Part shown: one piece after another, positions 41,408 through 57,531 of the stretch
Position numbering within the stretch: position 1 is the first letter of the stretch
Layout: each line of letters begins with the position of its first letter
NCBI RefSeq assembly: GCF_014174165.1
Contig: NZ_JABEQN010000001.1
Span: 186,001 to 250,000 of the forward strand
From: Gluconacetobacter dulcium
GTDB taxonomy: Bacteria > Pseudomonadota > Alphaproteobacteria > Acetobacterales > Acetobacteraceae
Direction of reading: 5' to 3'
DNA: 64,000 bases
Notes under the pieces: model-generated
Seen by the model: the letters and a program-made list of their open reading frames with translations, nothing else
The model's database searches: none
Told to the model about the DNA's origin: nothing
Program-made: the position numbers and the translations under genes

Positions 41408-43138
41408 ATGTCAGTTTTCAACGCCCTCACCACGGCAGTCAGCGGGATCAACGCCCAGTCGACCGCGTTCACGAACCTGAGTAACAACATCGCCAACAGC
41501 CAGACGGTCGGCTACAAAGCCACCACGACGGCATTCCAGGATTTCGTGGCCGGCTCACTGGGCCAGAATGCGTCTTCAGCCGATATCTCGGATTCAGTAG
41601 CCGCCGTCACTGTCCAGCATGTGGACAATCAAGGCACCGCAGCCACGAGCACGGACAGCCTTGCCACTGCCATTTCAGGGAGTGGCCTGTTCGTCGTTTC
41701 CAAAGAAAGCGGCGCATCGACATCCCAAAACACGCAATTTCAGTCCCAGAACTACTACACCCGGAATGGAGAAGTTTACAAAAACAACTCCGGATACCTG
41801 GTCAACACCAGTGGCTATTACCTCGACGGCTATATGGTGGACCCCACCACAGGCTCGCTGAACGCATCGCTGACGCAGCTCAATGTCGCCAATGTGGCCT
41901 TCCGCCCGACGCAGACCACGACGCTGACCTTGTCGGCGACGGTGGGAACGATGCCGTCCAGCAATGCCAGCTATACGGCAGCGGATGCTCAATCTTATAC
42001 GACGGCTCCCGTCACCACCTATGACGCGTCGGCGACACCACACAAGATCGCTTTGTCCTGGACGCAGAGCGGCACCAACCCTCTGGTCTGGAACGTCAGC
42101 GCGTATGACGCAGACGGTACCGGCACCATAGCCAACAACTCTTATCAGGTGACGTTCGACAGCAACGGTTCTCTGGCATCGGTTGCCAACGCTACTACTG
42201 GCCAGACGATCGGATCGACCCTGACAGGGGCAAGTGCTTCGATCCCCATTACGGCCAATTACAATGGCGTCGCGCAAAACATCACGCTCGATCTGGGAAC
42301 GATCGGCGGCACCAGCGGTACCGTTATGGCAGCATCCACAGGTACGGCGAGCACCAACCAAGCCAATGCTCTGACCGCGTCGGGCACGACGCTTACCATG
42401 AGCAAATCCGATGTGATCGGCACCACGACCGGCAGTAATCAAACGTCGATGACATCGCCTACCGATGCCAACGGTACTCCGGTTGCAGCCAAATGGACTC
42501 AGACGGCCGCTTCACCGCCGACATGGTCACTGTCCCTGGTCGATCCTTACGATACATCATCGTCGTCGCCCGTTAGCAGCGACACCTATAAGGTCGTATT
42601 CAACACAGATGGCAGCGTCCAGTCGGTTACGGACAGTACCACAGGTGTGACGACATCTTTAAGTGCACTCAGCGCCACAATTGGCGGCACGTCATATACA
42701 GTCAACCTCAGCCAGACGACGCTTTCAACGGCCAGCAGTCTGCCAACGGATACGACGGCCCTGCAATCCGACAGCATCGCCAGCGGCACCTACCAGGGCG
42801 TGGAAATCGAAAGCGACGGGTCGCTCATGGCCAAGTTCGATACCGGAACCCAGTTGATCGGCAAGATCGCACTGGCGAATTTTGCCAACGTAGACGGTCT
42901 GAATGCGGTCGACGGACAAGCATATACCGCCACGGCGTCTTCTGGCGACGCCAAGATCGGTCTGGCCGGGGCAAATGGCACTGGCACGTTGTCGGTAGGA
43001 TCTGTGGAATCGTCCACGACTGACCTCACCAGTGACCTGTCGGCCCTGATCGTCGCGCAGGAGGCTTACTCCGCCAACACCAAGATCGTCACGACTGCGG
43101 ACCAACTGCTGCAAACAACAATCGCCATGAAGCAGTAA
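41408..43138 (+). CDS. flgE: flagellar hook protein FlgE
   Basis: The 576-residue protein has the hook/rod N-terminus (FNALTTAVSGINAQSTAFTNLSNNIANSQT in blocks, then GYKATTTAFQDFV) and the C-terminal helix (LIVAQEAYSANTKIVTTADQLLQTTIAMKQ in blocks). It is longer than the enterobacterial protein (about 400). The extra length comes from two tandem outer modules. Module A (about residues 196-315) starts YTTAPVTTYDA and has SAYDADGTGTI; module B (about 335-470) has NQTSMTSP and LVDPYD. Both modules reappear in the DUF1217 protein at 54260. FlgE builds the hook. A strong hairpin follows the stop. Confidence 0.96.
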   Translation: MSVFNALTTAVSGINAQSTAFTNLSNNIANSQTVGYKATTTAFQDFVAGSLGQNASSADISDSVAAVTVQHVDNQGTAATSTDSLATAISGSGLFVVSKESGASTSQNTQFQSQNYYTRNGEVYKNNSGYLVNTSGYYLDGYMVDPTTGSLNASLTQLNVANVAFRPTQTTTLTLSATVGTMPSSNASYTAADAQSYTTAPVTTYDASATPHKIALSWTQSGTNPLVWNVSAYDADGTGTIANNSYQVTFDSNGSLASVANATTGQTIGSTLTGASASIPITANYNGVAQNITLDLGTIGGTSGTVMAASTGTASTNQANALTASGTTLTMSKSDVIGTTTGSNQTSMTSPTDANGTPVAAKWTQTAASPPTWSLSLVDPYDTSSSSPVSSDTYKVVFNTDGSVQSVTDSTTGVTTSLSALSATIGGTSYTVNLSQTTLSTASSLPTDTTALQSDSIASGTYQGVEIESDGSLMAKFDTGTQLIGKIALANFANVDGLNAVDGQAYTATASSGDAKIGLAGANGTGTLSVGSVESSTTDLTSDLSALIVAQEAYSANTKIVTTADQLLQTTIAMKQ

Positions 43139-50010: not shown

Positions 50011-51606
50011 TTAGAGCCAGTTGCGCAAAGCCCGCCCGACTTCCTGCAATACAGGTGCGAACGATCGCTCCCTCGCCCGGAACACGCGCATGTTCGGATA
50101 CCAGGGCGTGCCACTTCCTTCATCGCCCCATCGCCAGCAGGCATCCCAACGGCTGACCAGCCACACGGGGCAGCCGAGGGCGCCGGCAAGATGCAGCGGT
50201 GCCGTATCGACAGAAATGACCAGATCAAGATTTTTCATGATCGCCGCGGTATCGGCCATGTCACGTACATCGCCCATCGGGTCGAAGAGCGGTTGACCAT
50301 TCCATGCCTCGATTTCCGCGCGCGGCCCACCGAACTGTAGATTGACCAGCGTGGCCTCCACCGGGGTAAGGGCCGCTCCCATCTCGGCCAACGTGGTCGA
50401 ACGACGCTTGTCCGCCAGATCATACTCGGATTGCGCCCGCCGTTCGCCCGCCCAGACCAGCCCGACACGCGGCCGCCTGTCGGGCAAAAGGGCGGCAAAC
50501 CGTGCGACATCCCCCTCCTCGGCACGCAGATAGGGAATGGCAGCCGGAATATCCCGCACCGACATCACACCGCTGATATAAGGAAGATCCGGAATCGGGG
50601 CAGCATAGCTGTAGCCGTCCTCCCGGCCAAAGCTCCACTTGTCGCGAACGCACACGCCAGGGAAAGACTGAGACAAAAGACGAACGAGCATCGGAGGCAC
50701 GACGACAGTCACCTCCGCCCCCCTTTCCAGCAGATAAGGGAGGCAGCGGATGAATTGAATAGTATCGCCGAACCCCTGCTCGTCGAACAGCAGAACCTTC
50801 CGCCCCGATACGTCATCATCAGGCCCCAGGCGCGGTAATTCCAGGTACCATGCCGACTTGTCCTTAACAATCAGGTCCCGCTTAGAATAAATCTGCCAAC
50901 CATCCGCCAGCCTCCCGGCCTTCAGCAGCGTGCAGGCATAACCGAAGCTGGCGTCGGGCGACGGCTCAAGTGCCAGCGCCCTTTCATACCAGGGAAGGGC
51001 TTCGGACGACCGATTGAGACGCCCCAGGGCGCATCCGATATTGTTCAGAAGAGCCGCAGTCACGTCTCCGTTCATGAGATGAGACTGCAGGATCTTCAGC
51101 GCCTCCACCGGGTATCCGGCTTCAAGAAGCGACATCGATATGAATTCACATATATTCGCACGCTTCTCTGGATAACGCTCCATCATGCCGGAGAACAGGG
51201 CGCACCCTCCGGCGACATCGCCGCTAACAACGCGAACATGCGCCAGAAACGCCTGTGCCGACACATCGTCCGGATCGACCCGCAGCGTATTGCGCGCCAA
51301 TGTTTCGACAATATCATAACGGGAACTGTACCGCAGGATCACCGTCGCACCGGCCAGGCTCAACTGCCCGTCGTCCAGATGCAGTGACGTTACCTCCAGT
51401 ACCAGCCGGGTAACCTCGATGAGGTGCGCTTTCGCCGCCAACTTATCGCACGCCTCGATCAGATGGGCTGGCGTCGGCGATTGCAGCAGGCTTTCCTTCA
51501 GAAGCGCGACATCCACGAACTGCGCGGCATCGCCCATTTCGGACCCCAGGCCCCTCTTCGTTTCAATATCCGTCACAAATCCTGCCTCGCCTCGTCCGGG
51601 AGCCAT
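50011..51606 (-). CDS. TPR protein with glycosyltransferase (GT9/GT41-like) domain
   Basis: The protein (531 residues from the first ATG) has an N-terminal tetratricopeptide region (about 60-250, with NNIGCALGRLNRSSEALPWYERALALEPSPDASFGYACTLLKAGR in TPR blocks). A C-terminal GT-B half follows: SGRKVLLFDEQGFGDTIQFIRCLPYL, VGLVWAGERR and DLVISVDTAPLHLAGALGCPVWLVSRWDACWRW. Such TPR-glycosyltransferases often modify proteins. Placed within the flagellar locus, glycosylation of flagellin or another axial protein is a reasonable guess. Starts at 51606 (ATG), 51576 (GTG, with a better upstream purine stretch) and 51537 (ATG) are all possible. Confidence 0.82.
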   Translation of the reverse strand: MAPGRGEAGFVTDIETKRGLGSEMGDAAQFVDVALLKESLLQSPTPAHLIEACDKLAAKAHLIEVTRLVLEVTSLHLDDGQLSLAGATVILRYSSRYDIVETLARNTLRVDPDDVSAQAFLAHVRVVSGDVAGGCALFSGMMERYPEKRANICEFISMSLLEAGYPVEALKILQSHLMNGDVTAALLNNIGCALGRLNRSSEALPWYERALALEPSPDASFGYACTLLKAGRLADGWQIYSKRDLIVKDKSAWYLELPRLGPDDDVSGRKVLLFDEQGFGDTIQFIRCLPYLLERGAEVTVVVPPMLVRLLSQSFPGVCVRDKWSFGREDGYSYAAPIPDLPYISGVMSVRDIPAAIPYLRAEEGDVARFAALLPDRRPRVGLVWAGERRAQSEYDLADKRRSTTLAEMGAALTPVEATLVNLQFGGPRAEIEAWNGQPLFDPMGDVRDMADTAAIMKNLDLVISVDTAPLHLAGALGCPVWLVSRWDACWRWGDEGSGTPWYPNMRVFRARERSFAPVLQEVGRALRNWL

Positions 51607-51866: not shown

Positions 51867-54059
51867 TTGGACCCCGCCAATGGCAGCACAATCGCCGGGC
51901 CCGGCGATGGCAAGCTGACTGACGGAACCGCCGCGCGCGGCAAGTTCCCATCCCTTTCGCGCGGCATGGCCTCTGCAACCAGTCTGCTGCGCGGCGGCAA
52001 CCTGAATGCCGTTTCCTGGCGTTCCCTCATCCCCGGCACGGATATCGGCCTGGCGGTCGGCGTTCTGCTGCTCCTGTCCATTCTCATCGTCCCGCTACCG
52101 ACCTTCATCCTCGATATGGGGCTGTCGCTGTCGATCACCGCCTCGGCCCTGGTTCTCATGGTGTCGCTGTTTCTGGCGAAACCGGTCGAGTTCACCTCGT
52201 TTCCCACACTCCTCCTGCTGACCACACTCCTCCGGTTGGCACTCGAAATCGCGACCACACGCCTGATCCTCAGCCACGGCAACGAAGGCGCTTATGCCGC
52301 CGGCCATGTGGTGGCCGCATTCGGCGGCTTCCTGATGGGCGGGGATGTCGTCATCGGCGGGATCGTGTTCTGCATCCTGCTGGTGGTGAATTTCATGGTC
52401 ATCACCAAGGGCTCGGGCCGCATAGCCGAAGTCGCGGCGCGCTTCTTCCTCGACGCCATGCCGGGCAAGCAGATGGCGATCGACGCCGAACTGGCCTCGG
52501 GCGCGATCAACGACCGGACAGCACGCCTGAAGCGCAAGGAACTGGAAGAGGAAAGCTCATTCTACGGCGCCATGGACGGCGCCGCCAAATTCGTGCGCGG
52601 CGATGCGATCGCCGCAATCATCATCACGGGCATCAATATCGTCGGCGGCCTGGCCATCGGCGTGCTGCGTCACGGCATGCCCGTGAACGAAGCCGCGAAC
52701 ACCTTCACGACCCTGACCGTGGGCGATGGCCTCGTCTCGCAGATTCCCGCCCTTCTGGTTTCCACCGCCGCCGGCATCGTCGTCACGAAGGGCGGAACAG
52801 ACGGGTCCGCCGACGTCACGCTGGTCCGTCAGTTGGGCGGCAATCCCAAGCCGATGGCCATGGCCGCAGTCCTGTCGGCCTGCTTCGCGCTGCTGCCCGG
52901 CCTGCCCGCTTTTCCCTTCCTCACCATTGCCGCCCTGGCCGGTGCGGGCGCCTGGTTTCGCCACAAGACCCCCACCACGGACAGCGACGGCGACATTACC
53001 GAAACCGCCCCCACCCCGGCGACGACACCGATTTCCGACGTCCTCAAGCTCGACCTGCTCCGCCTCGAACTCGGCTTCGGCCTGCTGCCGCTGACAAGCG
53101 GCGATAACTCCCAGTTGACCGAGCAGATCAAGGCGCTGCGCAGGGCGATCGCAACCGAAATGGGCTTCGTGACACCGCCCATCCGGATTCAGGACAACAT
53201 CCTGCTTCCGTCCGAGAAGTACGTCATCAAGCTCAAGGAGATCGAGATCGGATCAGGCGAGGCGAAGCCCGGCAAGCTCATGGCCATGAGCCCGTCGGGC
53301 GGCACCCCGCCCCTGGCTGGAGACAAGGCGATCGAACCCGCATTCGGCCTGCCGGCAGTATGGATCGATCCGTCCCTGAAAACCAAGGCCATCGCCCTGA
53401 AATGCACCGTGGTCGACCCCGCCAGCGTCATCGTGACGCATCTCAGCGAACTGGTCAGGCAGAACCTGCCAGACCTCCTGACCTATGTCGCCACCCAGTC
53501 GCTGCTCGACGATCTGCCTCGCGAGCAGCAGAAGCTCGTCAACGACCTGATCCCGTCCCAGGTGACACTGAGCACCGTGCAGCGCGTCCTGCAGTCGCTG
53601 CTGGCCGAACGCATTTCGATCCGCGACCTTCCGACCATCCTGGAGAGCATCCAGGAAGGCAGCGGCCTCGGCCTGCGCGGCATACAGAACCTGACCAGCC
53701 ATGTGCGCGTCCGTCTGTCCCGACAGATCTGCAGCACGCTGGAAGGGCCAGGCGGCTATATTCCGATGGTCACGCTGTCCCCGGAATGGGAGGCGGAATT
53801 CATCAACCACATCACCGGACAAGGCGAGGAGCGGCGCCTCGCCATGCCGCCTTCGCTGCTGAATCGTTTCGTCACGCGACTGCGCGATGTCTTCAACACC
53901 CTCTCGTCCAGCGGCGAGGTACCCGTCATCGTCGTCTCGACGCCGGTCCGCGACTCCATGCGCTCGATCGTGGAGCGCGTCCGACCGAACGTGTCGGTCC
54001 TCTCACAATCTGAAATATACCCACGCGCCCGCATCAAGACGATCGCAACGATTACCTGA
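51867..54059 (+). CDS. flhA: flagellar export gate protein FlhA
   Basis: The 730-residue protein begins at TTG (AAGGGA about 10 nt upstream). A hydrophilic start of 45 residues is followed by about eight membrane helices, the conserved cytoplasmic loop (GRIAEVAARFFLDAMPGKQMAIDAEL, residues about 189-214, FHIPEP-like region) and the large C-terminal docking domain (LLPLTSGDNSQL to the end). SEIYPRARIKTIATI is the typical end. FlhA forms the nonameric ring that docks chaperones and late export substrates. Confidence 0.97.
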   Translation: MDPANGSTIAGPGDGKLTDGTAARGKFPSLSRGMASATSLLRGGNLNAVSWRSLIPGTDIGLAVGVLLLLSILIVPLPTFILDMGLSLSITASALVLMVSLFLAKPVEFTSFPTLLLLTTLLRLALEIATTRLILSHGNEGAYAAGHVVAAFGGFLMGGDVVIGGIVFCILLVVNFMVITKGSGRIAEVAARFFLDAMPGKQMAIDAELASGAINDRTARLKRKELEEESSFYGAMDGAAKFVRGDAIAAIIITGINIVGGLAIGVLRHGMPVNEAANTFTTLTVGDGLVSQIPALLVSTAAGIVVTKGGTDGSADVTLVRQLGGNPKPMAMAAVLSACFALLPGLPAFPFLTIAALAGAGAWFRHKTPTTDSDGDITETAPTPATTPISDVLKLDLLRLELGFGLLPLTSGDNSQLTEQIKALRRAIATEMGFVTPPIRIQDNILLPSEKYVIKLKEIEIGSGEAKPGKLMAMSPSGGTPPLAGDKAIEPAFGLPAVWIDPSLKTKAIALKCTVVDPASVIVTHLSELVRQNLPDLLTYVATQSLLDDLPREQQKLVNDLIPSQVTLSTVQRVLQSLLAERISIRDLPTILESIQEGSGLGLRGIQNLTSHVRVRLSRQICSTLEGPGGYIPMVTLSPEWEAEFINHITGQGEERRLAMPPSLLNRFVTRLRDVFNTLSSSGEVPVIVVSTPVRDSMRSIVERVRPNVSVLSQSEIYPRARIKTIATIT

Positions 54060-54259: not shown

Positions 54260-56005
54260 ATGTCCATCTCGAGCGTCTCTCCGATTGCGACATATGTTTC
54301 CGCCATCAAGAACGAAACGACGGCTGCGGAAACCTACGCAAAGGTCGACAGCACGACCAAGCTCGAAGTCGCGGCCTTCGAGAACAGCGCCGCGTCCATT
54401 ACATCGGCTGACGGGCTGCTGAAAAATTATTCGGTCCTGCAGGTGGTGCTCGGCGCTTACGGTCTCAGTTCCCTTGCCGGCCAGACGGCCGTGATCAAAG
54501 ACCTGCTGACGCAGGACCCGACATCCTCCACGTCCCTCGCCAAATCATCAGGCAATGCAGCATGGCTGGCCTTTGCCGATGCCTTCAAGACCTGGGGTCA
54601 GAACAAGGGCTCATCAACGGTATCGCCCTTCCTGACCGACGCGACTTCCGACGTCCTCAGCACGACCTATACGGCAACAAAGACCCTTTCGGTCAGTTCC
54701 ATCCTTCCTTCCGCCAGCGCAACAGGCCAGACGTACACCACGGCGCCCGTCACAACCTACGATGCGAATTCGGACGCTCACCAGGTGGCCCTCAAATGGA
54801 CCCAGGATTCCAGCAATCCCCTGTCGTGGACCGTCAGCGCCTATGATGCCGACGGCAATGCAACGATCGATACGAATGCCTATCAGGTCCTCTTCAATCA
54901 AGACGGCACCCTGGCATCAGCCACCGACATGTCCACCGGCAAGGCGGTGGCAGCGGACACCGCGGGCACCGTCGCACTGCCGATCAGCCTGAACATCATG
55001 CAGTCCGATGGAAGCAGCATCCAGCAATCCATCAACCTGAATCTTGGAACACCGGGCGGAACGAGCGGCGTCACCATGGCTCCGAAGAGCTCCGGCACCA
55101 GCACCGCCAGCCCAAGCCAGATCGTCAGCCTGACGTCCTCGGCCGACTCCAGCACCACCCTGACCCTTCCGTCCATTACCCTCGGCACCACATCGGGAAC
55201 GAACCAGACATACGTCACGGCCCCGTTCGACCCGAACGAGGCCACGGACGACGCAAACGGCACCAGTGCCGCCAACCGGACCACCCTGTCCGTCAAATGG
55301 GTGCAGGACACGTCCTCGCCCTCCACCTGGCAGGCTTATATCATCGACCCCTACGGCACGCAGGTCACCAGCACGACTTTTTCGACCACGTTCGACAACA
55401 CGGGGAATGTGATGCAGGTCAACGGCCAGTATTCACACGACATTCCCGCCCTGCAAGCGCAGGTCAACGGGGTTACATACACTGTCAATGTCCAACCCCC
55501 GAATCTCTCGACGTCGCCGCTGACCCAGAATTCGACCCTGACAAGCGACAGCACGGTCGCCAGCACGGTAACCGGGGTCAATATCAACACTGCCGTCTCG
55601 CAATTCGAGCTGAGTCAGTACGAGAACAGCACCGACATGCAGGATAACGGTGTCGGCAACGCGCTCTACTTCACGCGCAAGATGAGCGGCGTCACCACCC
55701 TGGCGCAGTTGATGTCCGACCCTACATTGCTGAAAGTCGCGGAAACGGTCGCAGGCTACGATCCCTCGGTATTCGGAACCCTGGATTACGACCAACAGGT
55801 TCGGATGCTGACGAACAAGGTAGATTTCAGCAAGCTCTCGACCCCGCAGCAGATCCAGCAATATGCCGAGCGTTACCTGGCCATGCTCCAGGTCAACCCG
55901 CAGACGCCCGACAAGCCGGCAACCATGCTGGATCTGTACGGTGGCGGTTCAAGTGCCGAGGGCATCGCCGCACTGTTTGGCGTCAACACGTCATCCTCGA
56001 GCTGA
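54260..56005 (+). CDS. DUF1217 flagellar protein with inserted hook-like modules
   Basis: The 581-residue protein starts with a DUF1217 half (residues 1-157: SPIATYVSAIKNETTAAETYAK, then VLQVVLGAYGLSSL and WLAFADAFKTWGQ) and ends with the second half (about 440-581: FELSQYENSTDMQDNGVGNALYFTRKM, then TLDYDQQVRML and IQQYAERYLAMLQV). Between them are two modules that match FlgE of this genome: module A (158-275) shares YTTAPVTTYDA, SAYDADG and GGTSG; module B (about 310-430) shares NQT, DANGT and IDPYG. Usual DUF1217 proteins lack this insert. The role of DUF1217 proteins is not established; they occur in alphaproteobacterial flagellar loci. Ser/Thr-rich, no Cys, no signal, as expected for a type III exported axial protein. 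Confidence 0.85.
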   Translation: MSISSVSPIATYVSAIKNETTAAETYAKVDSTTKLEVAAFENSAASITSADGLLKNYSVLQVVLGAYGLSSLAGQTAVIKDLLTQDPTSSTSLAKSSGNAAWLAFADAFKTWGQNKGSSTVSPFLTDATSDVLSTTYTATKTLSVSSILPSASATGQTYTTAPVTTYDANSDAHQVALKWTQDSSNPLSWTVSAYDADGNATIDTNAYQVLFNQDGTLASATDMSTGKAVAADTAGTVALPISLNIMQSDGSSIQQSINLNLGTPGGTSGVTMAPKSSGTSTASPSQIVSLTSSADSSTTLTLPSITLGTTSGTNQTYVTAPFDPNEATDDANGTSAANRTTLSVKWVQDTSSPSTWQAYIIDPYGTQVTSTTFSTTFDNTGNVMQVNGQYSHDIPALQAQVNGVTYTVNVQPPNLSTSPLTQNSTLTSDSTVASTVTGVNINTAVSQFELSQYENSTDMQDNGVGNALYFTRKMSGVTTLAQLMSDPTLLKVAETVAGYDPSVFGTLDYDQQVRMLTNKVDFSKLSTPQQIQQYAERYLAMLQVNPQTPDKPATMLDLYGGGSSAEGIAALFGVNTSSSS

Positions 56006-56073: not shown

Positions 56074-57531
56074 ATGCAGCCTGCCGAAACGAACAGCGAA
56101 ACCGAGCGAGCATCGCAGGACGATGCGCTTGCCAGCGGTATGGCCCACACCCTGCATGCGCTCCGTCAGGCCGTAGCCGGCCCCTTCCACGATGTTCCCG
56201 TAGGCGTGCTGGAAGGGCGTGTGACGGGACTGACCGGCCTGTCCGTCTCCCTCAGCGGCATGCGCGACTTCACCGGTGTGGGAGACCGGGTCAGCATTAT
56301 CGGACTGGACGGGCGCGAGACAGAGGCGGAAATCGTAGCGTTCCGGGGAGACACGGCCATCGCCATGCCGTTCGGAGCCCTGGCGGGCATAGGCTCCGGC
56401 TGCCGCGCAATGTTCCGGCTTTATGATCAGGAACAGAGGCGGCGCCGGGCGGGCGGCACGCTGGTCGTCAGTCCGTTGTGGCAAGGACGTGTCATCGACC
56501 CGATGGGGCGCCCCGTTGACGGCAAAGGGCCGCTTCCCCCAGGCGGGGAACCCTGTCGGCTGCACGCCCCCCCTCCCGAAGCTGGCCTGCGGGCACGCCT
56601 GGGACCACGCATCGACCTCGGCGTCCGGGTGCTCAACCTGTTCACGACCTGCCGCGAAGGCCAGAGACTCGGCCTGTTCGCCGGCTCCGGCGTGGGAAAA
56701 TCCACGCTGATGGGGATGCTGGCGCGCAATACCGACTGCGACGTGGCAGTCATCGCGCTTGTCGGCGAACGCGGCCGGGAAGTCCGGGAATTCGTGGAAG
56801 ACGATCTGGGGCCGGAAGGGCTGGCCAAATCGGTCGTCGTGGTCGCCACCTCCGACACGTCCCCCCTCATGCGACGGGAAGCCGCCTATTCGGCCATGGC
56901 GGTAGCGGAATATTTCAGGGATCAAGGCAAATCAGTGCTGCTGCTCATGGACAGCGTCACCCGCTTTTGCCAGGCCCTGCGTGAAATCGGGCTGTCTTCC
57001 GGCGAACCTCCCGCGACCCGGGGCTATCCGCCCAGCGTCTTCGCGGAGTTGCCGCGTCTGCTGGAGCGCGCAGGCCCGGGCCTCGCCGGGCCGGACGGCA
57101 AGGCCGGCCAGATCACGGCCATGTTCTCGGTACTGGTCGAAGGCGACGACCACAACGAGCCGGTCGCCGATGCGGTGCGCGGCATTCTCGATGGGCATGT
57201 CGTGCTGGAACGGCGGATCGCCGAGGCCGGGCGCTATCCGGCCGTCAACGTCCTCCGCTCTCTCTCGCGCACCGTTCCCGGATGCAACAGCGTGGAGGAA
57301 AACGCCCTGACCCAGGAAGCACGAACCGATCTTGCGACCTGGGAAGATATCCAGGACATGGTTCGCCTGGGCGCCTATCGGGCAGGAAACGATCCGCTCA
57401 CCGACAAGGCCATTCAGGTCGCGCCCGTCATCGAAGGCATCCTGAAGCAGTCACGCCAGGAAAAGGCGACGATCGCCGCAAGCTTCGACGCCCTGCGCGG
57501 CGCGCTCTCGGCTTCCCGCACATCGCGATGA
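56074..57531 (+). CDS. fliI: flagellar export ATPase FliI
   Basis: The 485-residue protein has an N-terminal beta-barrel, Walker A GSGVGKST (residues 204-211), VIALVGERGREVREF (227-241) and Walker B VLLLMDSVTRF with Asp293. C-terminal helical domain ends KATIAASFDAL. It hydrolyses ATP to release chaperone-substrate complexes at the export gate. Its stop overlaps the fliJ ATG by 4 bp. Confidence 0.97.
   Translation: MQPAETNSETERASQDDALASGMAHTLHALRQAVAGPFHDVPVGVLEGRVTGLTGLSVSLSGMRDFTGVGDRVSIIGLDGRETEAEIVAFRGDTAIAMPFGALAGIGSGCRAMFRLYDQEQRRRRAGGTLVVSPLWQGRVIDPMGRPVDGKGPLPPGGEPCRLHAPPPEAGLRARLGPRIDLGVRVLNLFTTCREGQRLGLFAGSGVGKSTLMGMLARNTDCDVAVIALVGERGREVREFVEDDLGPEGLAKSVVVVATSDTSPLMRREAAYSAMAVAEYFRDQGKSVLLLMDSVTRFCQALREIGLSSGEPPATRGYPPSVFAELPRLLERAGPGLAGPDGKAGQITAMFSVLVEGDDHNEPVADAVRGILDGHVVLERRIAEAGRYPAVNVLRSLSRTVPGCNSVEENALTQEARTDLATWEDIQDMVRLGAYRAGNDPLTDKAIQVAPVIEGILKQSRQEKATIAASFDALRGALSASRTSR

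What the first reader, a model, noticed from the sequence alone, without database searches (positions are those of the whole stretch)
54260..56005. DUF1217 protein carries two tandem modules homologous to the hook protein
Read side by side, the middle of the DUF1217 protein (residues 158-430, about 54731-55550) and the outer part of FlgE (about residues 196-470, 41993-42817) share the same two modules in the same order: YTTAPVTTYDA, KWTQ/SWTQ, SAYDADG, GGTSG in A; NQT, DANGT, DPY in B. The DUF1217 halves lie on either side, so this looks like an insertion. Third-codon positions differ, so it is not a recent copy or an assembly artefact. The protein could be a second hook-like or hook-capping axial component, or a ruler or adaptor decorated like the hook surface.
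Basis: partly seen in the sequence, partly recalled or inferred. Interest (0 to 1): 0.78.

Follow-up and report, generated by a model that had tools for sequence, protein, structure and literature searches.

The report
Flagellar protein carrying borrowed hook domains
In some acetic acid bacteria a poorly understood flagellar protein has picked up two outer domains of the hook protein, and the evidence hints that this protein helps to build the flagellar filament where the usual filament-cap protein is missing.

Summary
Residues 136-442 of the DUF1217 protein align with FlgE at 41% identity over 324 columns (E 7e-53). Pfam finds DUF1217 split around a FlgE_D2 match. The model of module A matches FlgE structures first. 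Trees fit one copying of the two-module block from a two-module FlgE, in an ancestor of Gluconacetobacter species and genus g85. It is old at silent sites and under purifying selection.

The host protein matters more than the insert. It is the genome's only DUF1217 gene. The family is Cys-poor and sits in flagellar clusters. It rarely shares a genome with FliD: 0 of 158 DUF1217 genomes in this bacterial family, 3 of 35 in a class sample. In Cereibacter sphaeroides it follows flagellin-flaF-flbT on the 124-kb plasmid, the place that PMC12363192 gives to "CP1". A Phaeobacter inhibens CP1 mutant exports flagellin but shows no flagella. I therefore read DUF1217 as an exported filament-assembly factor, perhaps cap-like, of FliD-less alphaproteobacterial flagella, here with a hook-derived head. 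The insert is shown; the role is inferred.

The parts
54260..56005 (+). DUF1217 (PF06748) flagellar protein, 581 aa, with a two-module FlgE_D2 insert; the only DUF1217 gene found in this genome
54260..54673 (+). N-terminal DUF1217 half (residues 1-138)
   Evidence: in-house DUF1217 profile positions 22-159, E 5.7e-52
54695..55165 (+). insert module A (residues 146-302), FlgE_D2 type
55172..55591 (+). insert module B (residues 305-444), FlgE_D2 type, diverged
55592..56002 (+). C-terminal DUF1217 half (residues 445-581)
   Evidence: PF06748 best stretch 435-531; in-house profile positions 140-290, E 7.1e-63 from residue 431
41408..43138 (+). FlgE hook protein with two D2 modules, relative of the donor
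   Evidence: NCBIfam and Pfam matches
41933..42412 (+). FlgE D2 module A (residues 176-335)
42407..42814 (+). FlgE D2 module B (residues 334-469)
51867..54059 (+). flhA, upstream neighbour (named from the sequence; not scanned by Pfam here)
   Evidence: ORF; used as the FlhA query
56074..57531 (+). fliI, downstream neighbour (named from the sequence; not scanned by Pfam here)
   Evidence: ORF; used as the FliI query

Best explanation
Shown: the protein is a DUF1217 protein whose middle loop holds a block of two tandem FlgE D2 modules; the trees fit a single copying in an ancestor of several Gluconacetobacter species and genus g85, and the modules are kept by selection. Inferred: DUF1217 proteins are exported through the flagellar type III pathway and act late, after the hook, in making or capping the flagellin filament in flagella that have no FliD. 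The N- and C-terminal helical halves would do the conserved job. The inserted D2 modules would form a beta-rich head on the outside, as D2 does on the hook, changing surface or stability rather than the core function. Which late step (cap, junction or assembly factor) is not settled.
For: Insert. Single copy in the genome. Flagellar linkage: of 77 family genomes with both matches on one contig, 75 have DUF1217 within 25 kb of FlgE. Export-like composition: 82 of 90 DUF1217 rows have no Cys, 8 Cys in 36,173 residues; in the own cluster 10 of 11 rod, hook, filament and FliK-type proteins have none (FliE has 1), against 2-11 in FliG, FliM, FliI, CheA, CheR and CheB; the N-terminus is less hydrophobic than those of FlgH and FlgA (1.25 against 2.31 and 2.38). 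FliD: own genome none; 0 of 158 DUF1217 genomes in the family; 3 of 35 in the class sample, each with FliD on a contig with FlgE_D2 and DUF1217 on another. Rhizobiaceae and P. inhibens are reported to lack FliD (PMC6913195 passages; PMC12363192). Operons: flagellin-flaF-flbT-DUF1217 in Salipiger, Loktanella and Cereibacter; flagellin-flaF-flbT-flaG-DUF1217 in Azospirillum. CP1 by position is DUF1217, and its mutant exports flagellin but shows no flagellum. C. sphaeroides uses fliD with its foreign flagellum, while the flagellin, flaF and flbT of its other flagellum lie on plasmid A, where DUF1217 follows them. Of the long DUF1217 proteins examined elsewhere in the class, 4 share a C-terminal extension that in 1 of the 4 (L158) matches Flagellin_N above the cut-off.
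Against: None of CP1-4 was found in the P. inhibens exoproteome, and that paper calls CP1-4 exclusive to fla1-type clusters of Rhodobacterales and suggests chaperones among possible roles. P. inhibens CP1 itself was not examined; its identity rests on gene order and replicon size. 68 of 153 FlgE_D2 genomes of the class sample have neither DUF1217 nor FliD, so DUF1217 is not a general stand-in. The exclusion is not corrected for phylogeny, and the 5 FliD genomes of the family may carry a different flagellum. A Brucella review lists a FliD gene in a genus that has DUF1217. MotB, FliL, FliF and FlgA also lack Cys; two other DUF1217 N-termini reach hydropathy 1.57 and 1.75. Export without filament also follows loss of FlgK and FlgL in Salmonella (PMC12221982 passage). 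No fold likeness of DUF1217 to FliD was tested; the solved relative 2o8s (found with the insert-less relative L007) could not be compared here.
Confidence: 0.5

Rival explanations
1. A cytoplasmic assembly factor or export chaperone for flagellin or hook proteins. The D2 modules would bind or mimic the hook inside the cell.
For: CP1 not seen in the exoproteome, and chaperone roles suggested by the authors. The gene lies between flhA and fliI here and follows flbT elsewhere.
Against: Cys depletion in 82 of 90 rows against 2-11 Cys in six cytoplasmic proteins of the same cluster. Repeated gain of large extra domains, among them hook D2 and a flagellin-like one.
Confidence: 0.2
2. A hook-filament junction or adaptor protein next to FlgK and FlgL rather than the tip.
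For: The flagellin-exported, no-flagellum phenotype fits a junction defect too. Hook D2 modules would suit a hook-side position.
Against: FlgK and a FlgL-like protein are encoded in the same cluster. The rarity of FliD in DUF1217 genomes is not predicted by it.
Confidence: 0.15
3. A second hook subunit, hook cap or hook ruler.
For: Two hook D2 modules.
Against: No Flg_bb_rod or Flg_bbr_C ends. FlgD and a FliK-like gene are present. Most DUF1217 matches listed in the family are in one piece, without an insert. The likely orthologue's mutant still exports hook and filament proteins.
Confidence: 0.1
4. Chance likeness of two Ser/Thr-rich secreted proteins.
For: Both are rich in Ser and Thr (seen).
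Against: E 7e-53 with composition adjustment; no shuffle of 300 per pair reached the observed score; matching fold for module A; nested trees.
Confidence: 0.01

Closest known systems
Flagellar hook protein FlgE, D2 domain (PF07559)
   Same: Both insert modules, in the same order as in two-module FlgE; module A matches FlgE D2 structures best (6ndx_B, Foldseek E 1.8e-7)
   Different: Here the modules sit in a DUF1217 protein; FlgE's N- and C-terminal axial families are absent
DUF1217 family (PF06748), solved example 2o8s (AGR_C_984p; sequence match of the insert-less relative L007)
   Same: Both halves of the host protein
   Different: Most matches listed in the family are in one piece, without an insert
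CP1 of Phaeobacter inhibens (PMC12363192)
   Same: By gene order and replicon a DUF1217 protein: fliC-flaF-flbT-CP1 in the paper, flagellin-flaF-flbT-DUF1217 in NZ_CP030273.1
   Different: No hook insert in the C. sphaeroides protein (262 aa); the P. inhibens protein itself was not examined; the authors call CP1-4 specific to Rhodobacterales fla1
FliD filament cap
   Same: Proposed late role; mostly reciprocal occurrence
   Different: No FliD_N or FliD_C match in the own genome; fold likeness not tested

Membership tests
DUF1217 (PF06748) | profile match above the gathering score | tested here: met
   122 bits, cut-off 22.9, two stretches
FlgE_D2 domain (PF07559) | profile match above the gathering score | tested here: met
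   27.8 bits, cut-off 22.7, best stretch 157-288; the genome-wide search did not list it
FlgE_D2 domain (PF07559) | D2 fold, module A | tested here: met
   7 Foldseek hits with E <= 0.001, all FlgE (6ndt, 6ndv, 6ndw, 6ndx); block pLDDT 61-86 for residues 141-270, lower after
FlgE_D2 domain (PF07559) | D2 fold, module B | tested here: inconclusive
   block pLDDT under 55; sequence relation clear
Hook protein FlgE as a whole | Flg_bb_rod and Flg_bbr_C ends | tested here: not met
   absent from the P0001 table at E up to 10, present in FlgE
FliD | FliD_N or FliD_C profile | tested here: not met
   no match in P0001 nor in G000
FliD | sits at the filament tip and is needed for filament growth | not testable with these tools
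   needs a knockout and microscopy; CP1 mutant data are from PMC12363192
Exported axial flagellar protein | no Sec signal, Cys depletion | tested here: inconclusive
   both seen but not specific: FliF, FliL, MotB and FlgA also lack Cys; no signal-peptide predictor was run
FlgD hook cap / FliK ruler | their Pfam profiles | tested here: not met
   separate FlgD and FliK-like (under the cut-off) genes exist

The most novel reading that the evidence does not exclude
DUF1217 is the missing filament cap (or cap-equivalent) of FliD-less alphaproteobacterial flagella. Its middle loop is a docking site for borrowed surface heads, and in Gluconacetobacter and genus g85 that head was taken from the hook.
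Probability: 0.33. Interest if true: 0.85.

Novelty: new variant of a known kind. Interest (0 to 1): 0.62.

Why it matters
Rhizobiaceae and Phaeobacter are reported to make flagella without FliD, and how their filaments grow is open. A family of unknown function that is rarely found with FliD, follows the flagellin operon in several named records, and by position includes a motility-essential protein with a no-flagellum mutant makes that question testable. The insert shows that a hook surface domain can be moved whole into another flagellar protein, and that one loop of DUF1217 has taken up different domains in several lineages.

Tried and rejected
Chance or low-complexity likeness: rejected. 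Recent duplication or assembly artefact: rejected. Co-evolution of insert and own hook surface: not seen (G174, G042, G123, G060). Several independent D2 insertions: not needed; the 10 insert rows are one side of a branch, support 96/95 and 92/89 after a stricter cut. Origin of the other two insert types from known flagellar domains: my first guess of a flagellin-IN origin for type 3 found no support (only weak or odd hits such as LPD30 0.00077 and ig-h3 0.0019). PDB sequence search with the insert alone: best E 0.078, no FlgE. FlgE model from one sequence: too poor to use, mean pLDDT 37. PHROGs: nothing. Neighbour search on short loci: 68 of 90 loci showed none of the eight queries, because flanks were short or the order differs. 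Literature: DUF1217 occurs in 2 papers of the library; the passages seen give no function; no paper holds 2O8S or AGR_C_984. Claims that something is not in print rest in the open-licence library only.

Full report
What is there. The window is a Gluconacetobacter flagellar cluster; the nearest listed relative of the protein is that of G. liquefaciens, 94% identical (records very near the window may be left out there). Between the ORFs that I name flhA and fliI lies a 581-aa ORF, 54260-56005. Pfam places DUF1217 at both ends and FlgE_D2 in the middle. BLASTP against FlgE of the same window gives 41% over 324 columns, E 7e-53. Each module matches its namesake in FlgE far above 300 shuffles, and A and B are distant repeats of one another in both proteins. 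The AlphaFold model from 7 sequences is poor overall (mean pLDDT 49) but fair in residues 141-270 of module A. Its Foldseek matches with E up to 0.001 are 7, all FlgE (6ndt, 6ndv, 6ndw, 6ndx). Module B and the helical halves were not modelled well enough to judge. Two searches did less well: the genome-wide FlgE_D2 search did not list this insert, and a PDB sequence search with the insert found no FlgE.

How the insert arose. In the module tree of 55 rows the first-type modules of the DUF1217 proteins form one group (13 rows, 86/94) beside the first modules of two-module FlgE proteins (11 rows, 98/94). The second modules of the DUF1217 proteins form one group (10 rows, 100/100) inside the group of FlgE second modules (21 rows, 100/99), where the inner order is unresolved. 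So both modules most likely came together from a two-module hook protein. In the tree of the DUF1217 core the 10 insert-bearing rows are one side of a branch (96/95; 92/89 after a stricter cut). Relatives without the insert lie outside: G123 (same genus by the tool's grouping), G060 and Acetobacter orientalis. G042 has five modules. Four-fold sites agree in 23 of 89 cases. dN/dS of the modules is 0.09-0.41 and of the core 0.07-0.22 in six species pairs. The insert is old and kept.

One loop, several guests. In the family survey 158 of 200 genomes have DUF1217. At least 15 of these carry a large middle insert: 6 with FlgE_D2 (G000, G042, G174, G085, G149, G192), 6 with a second type (G056, G132, G181, G071, G128, G086) and 3 with a third (G107, G162, G143). 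The count is a lower bound because some rows were not listed and G093 is split between contigs. In 17 insert-bearing rows the second half starts at profile positions 125-142; the first half ends at 133-161 in 15 rows and at 185 and 188 in the other two. Types two and three matched no family convincingly. The third type recurs in G473, outside the family. Elsewhere in the class, four examined DUF1217 proteins of over 800 aa have mutually homologous C-terminal extensions; one of the four matches Flagellin_N above the cut-off. Some proteins repeat DUF1217 stretches: G477, R. etli p42f near flgE, G061.

What DUF1217 is. The gene is flagellar: of 137 family genomes whose DUF1217 and FlgE matches both had listed coordinates, 77 have them on one contig, 58 within 10 kb and 75 within 25 kb. 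It is Cys-poor: 82 of 90 rows have none (the 90 include at least five genes fetched twice, and rows under 200 residues were dropped). In the own cluster 10 of 11 rod, hook, filament and FliK-type proteins have none and FliE has 1, while FliG, FliM, FliI, CheA, CheR and CheB have 2-11; FliF, FliL, MotB and FlgA also have none. Of these names FliM, FliI, FliL, FlhA, FlhB and FliR are read from the sequence and were not scanned. The N-terminus is less hydrophobic than those of FlgH and FlgA. This suits export by the flagellar pathway but does not prove it. That axial flagellar proteins generally lack Cys is recalled.

FliD. The genome has FlgD, FlgK and a FlgL-like protein but no FliD_C or FliD_N match. 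In the family, FliD_N marks 5 of 200 genomes and FliD_C the same 5 plus one under the cut-off; none of these six has DUF1217. Of 154 FlgE_D2 genomes in the family, 9 lack DUF1217 and 5 of those are the FliD genomes. In the class sample of 289, DUF1217 marks 35, FliD_C 72 (69 over the cut-off) and FlgE_D2 153; both DUF1217 and FliD occur in 3. Among FlgE_D2 genomes the table is 3, 26, 56, 68 (both, DUF1217 only, FliD only, neither), Fisher p 0.0005, and over all 289 it is 3, 32, 69, 185, p 0.02; neither is corrected for phylogeny. In the 3 with both, FliD lies on a contig with FlgE_D2 and DUF1217 on another. PMC6913195 says that Rhizobiaceae lack FliD (passages). A review of Brucella, a genus with DUF1217 (PMC7410920, passage), lists a FliD gene (PMC8781033, passages), which does not fit and was not checked.

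Link to a known mutant. PMC12363192 (abstract and sections 7, 8 and 9 read, passages elsewhere) reports that P. inhibens lacks FliD, that conserved proteins CP1-4 are needed for motility, that C. sphaeroides has fliC-flaF-flbT-CP1 on a 124-kb plasmid, and that the CP1 mutant exports most flagellar proteins including FliC yet shows no flagella, with an undefined polar structure in some cells. The 124,316-bp plasmid pA of C. sphaeroides 2.4.1 (NZ_CP030273.1) reads flagellin, flaF, flbT, DUF1217, and Pfam confirms DUF1217 (1.5e-38). So CP1 is, by position, a DUF1217 protein. I did not see the P. inhibens sequence. The paper calls CP1-4 exclusive to fla1-type clusters of Rhodobacterales; DUF1217 is wider, with the same order in Salipiger and Loktanella and with flaG between in Azospirillum. 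In Sulfitobacter the gene before flaF is annotated only as hypothetical. PMC7277832 (passages) says that C. sphaeroides Fla1 uses fliC and fliD and that the Fla2 flagellin, flaF and flbT are on plasmid A; the two papers number the flagella differently. That would put DUF1217 with the flagellum that is not the FliD one. Azospirillum brasilense has a FliD cluster with a minor polar flagellin (PMC12826043, passages) besides its DUF1217 cluster (another strain).

Reading. I take DUF1217 to be an exported factor for filament assembly in alphaproteobacterial flagella without FliD, most boldly their cap. The hook modules would be a head on its outer side. Against it: CP1 was not found outside the cell; loss of FlgK and FlgL in Salmonella also leaves flagellin in the medium (PMC12221982, passage); 68 of 153 genomes have neither protein; fold likeness to FliD was not tested. 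The insert and its source I hold as shown; the role is a hypothesis at about one half, the cap version at about one third.

Noticed in passing
L108 (G042 FlgE) and L109 (G174 FlgE): Two Gluconacetobacter species have one-module FlgE whose D2 groups with more distant genera (87/76, weak) while their FlgE cores group with their own relatives (100/100): the hook outer domain may have been swapped or reverted.
   Followed up: partly
L097 (G061), L160 (G477), L181:4513-6696 (Rhizobium etli p42f): DUF1217 proteins with duplicated or multiple DUF1217 stretches; the R. etli one (4 stretches) lies near flgE on a plasmid.
   Followed up: no
A2 (L094-L096, L098, L102, L106) and A3 (L103-L105, L161): Two further insert types of unknown family at the same DUF1217 loop; the third is a repeat of about 95 aa, once in g17 and three times in G143, also present outside the family.
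   Followed up: partly
window 50011-51606 (-) and L173:10852-12288: TPR proteins with a glycosyltransferase-9-like match under the cut-off beside the flagellar genes, possibly for flagellin glycosylation.
   Followed up: no
L173:3110-5716: 868-aa ORF between FlgD and FlgB without any Pfam match at E 0.01; may be a spurious or an unknown gene.
   Followed up: no
end of the ORF, about window 56002: The window protein and that of G. liquefaciens end about 10 residues earlier than four of the five other aligned proteins, which end in a tail with LYSxMF.
   Followed up: no
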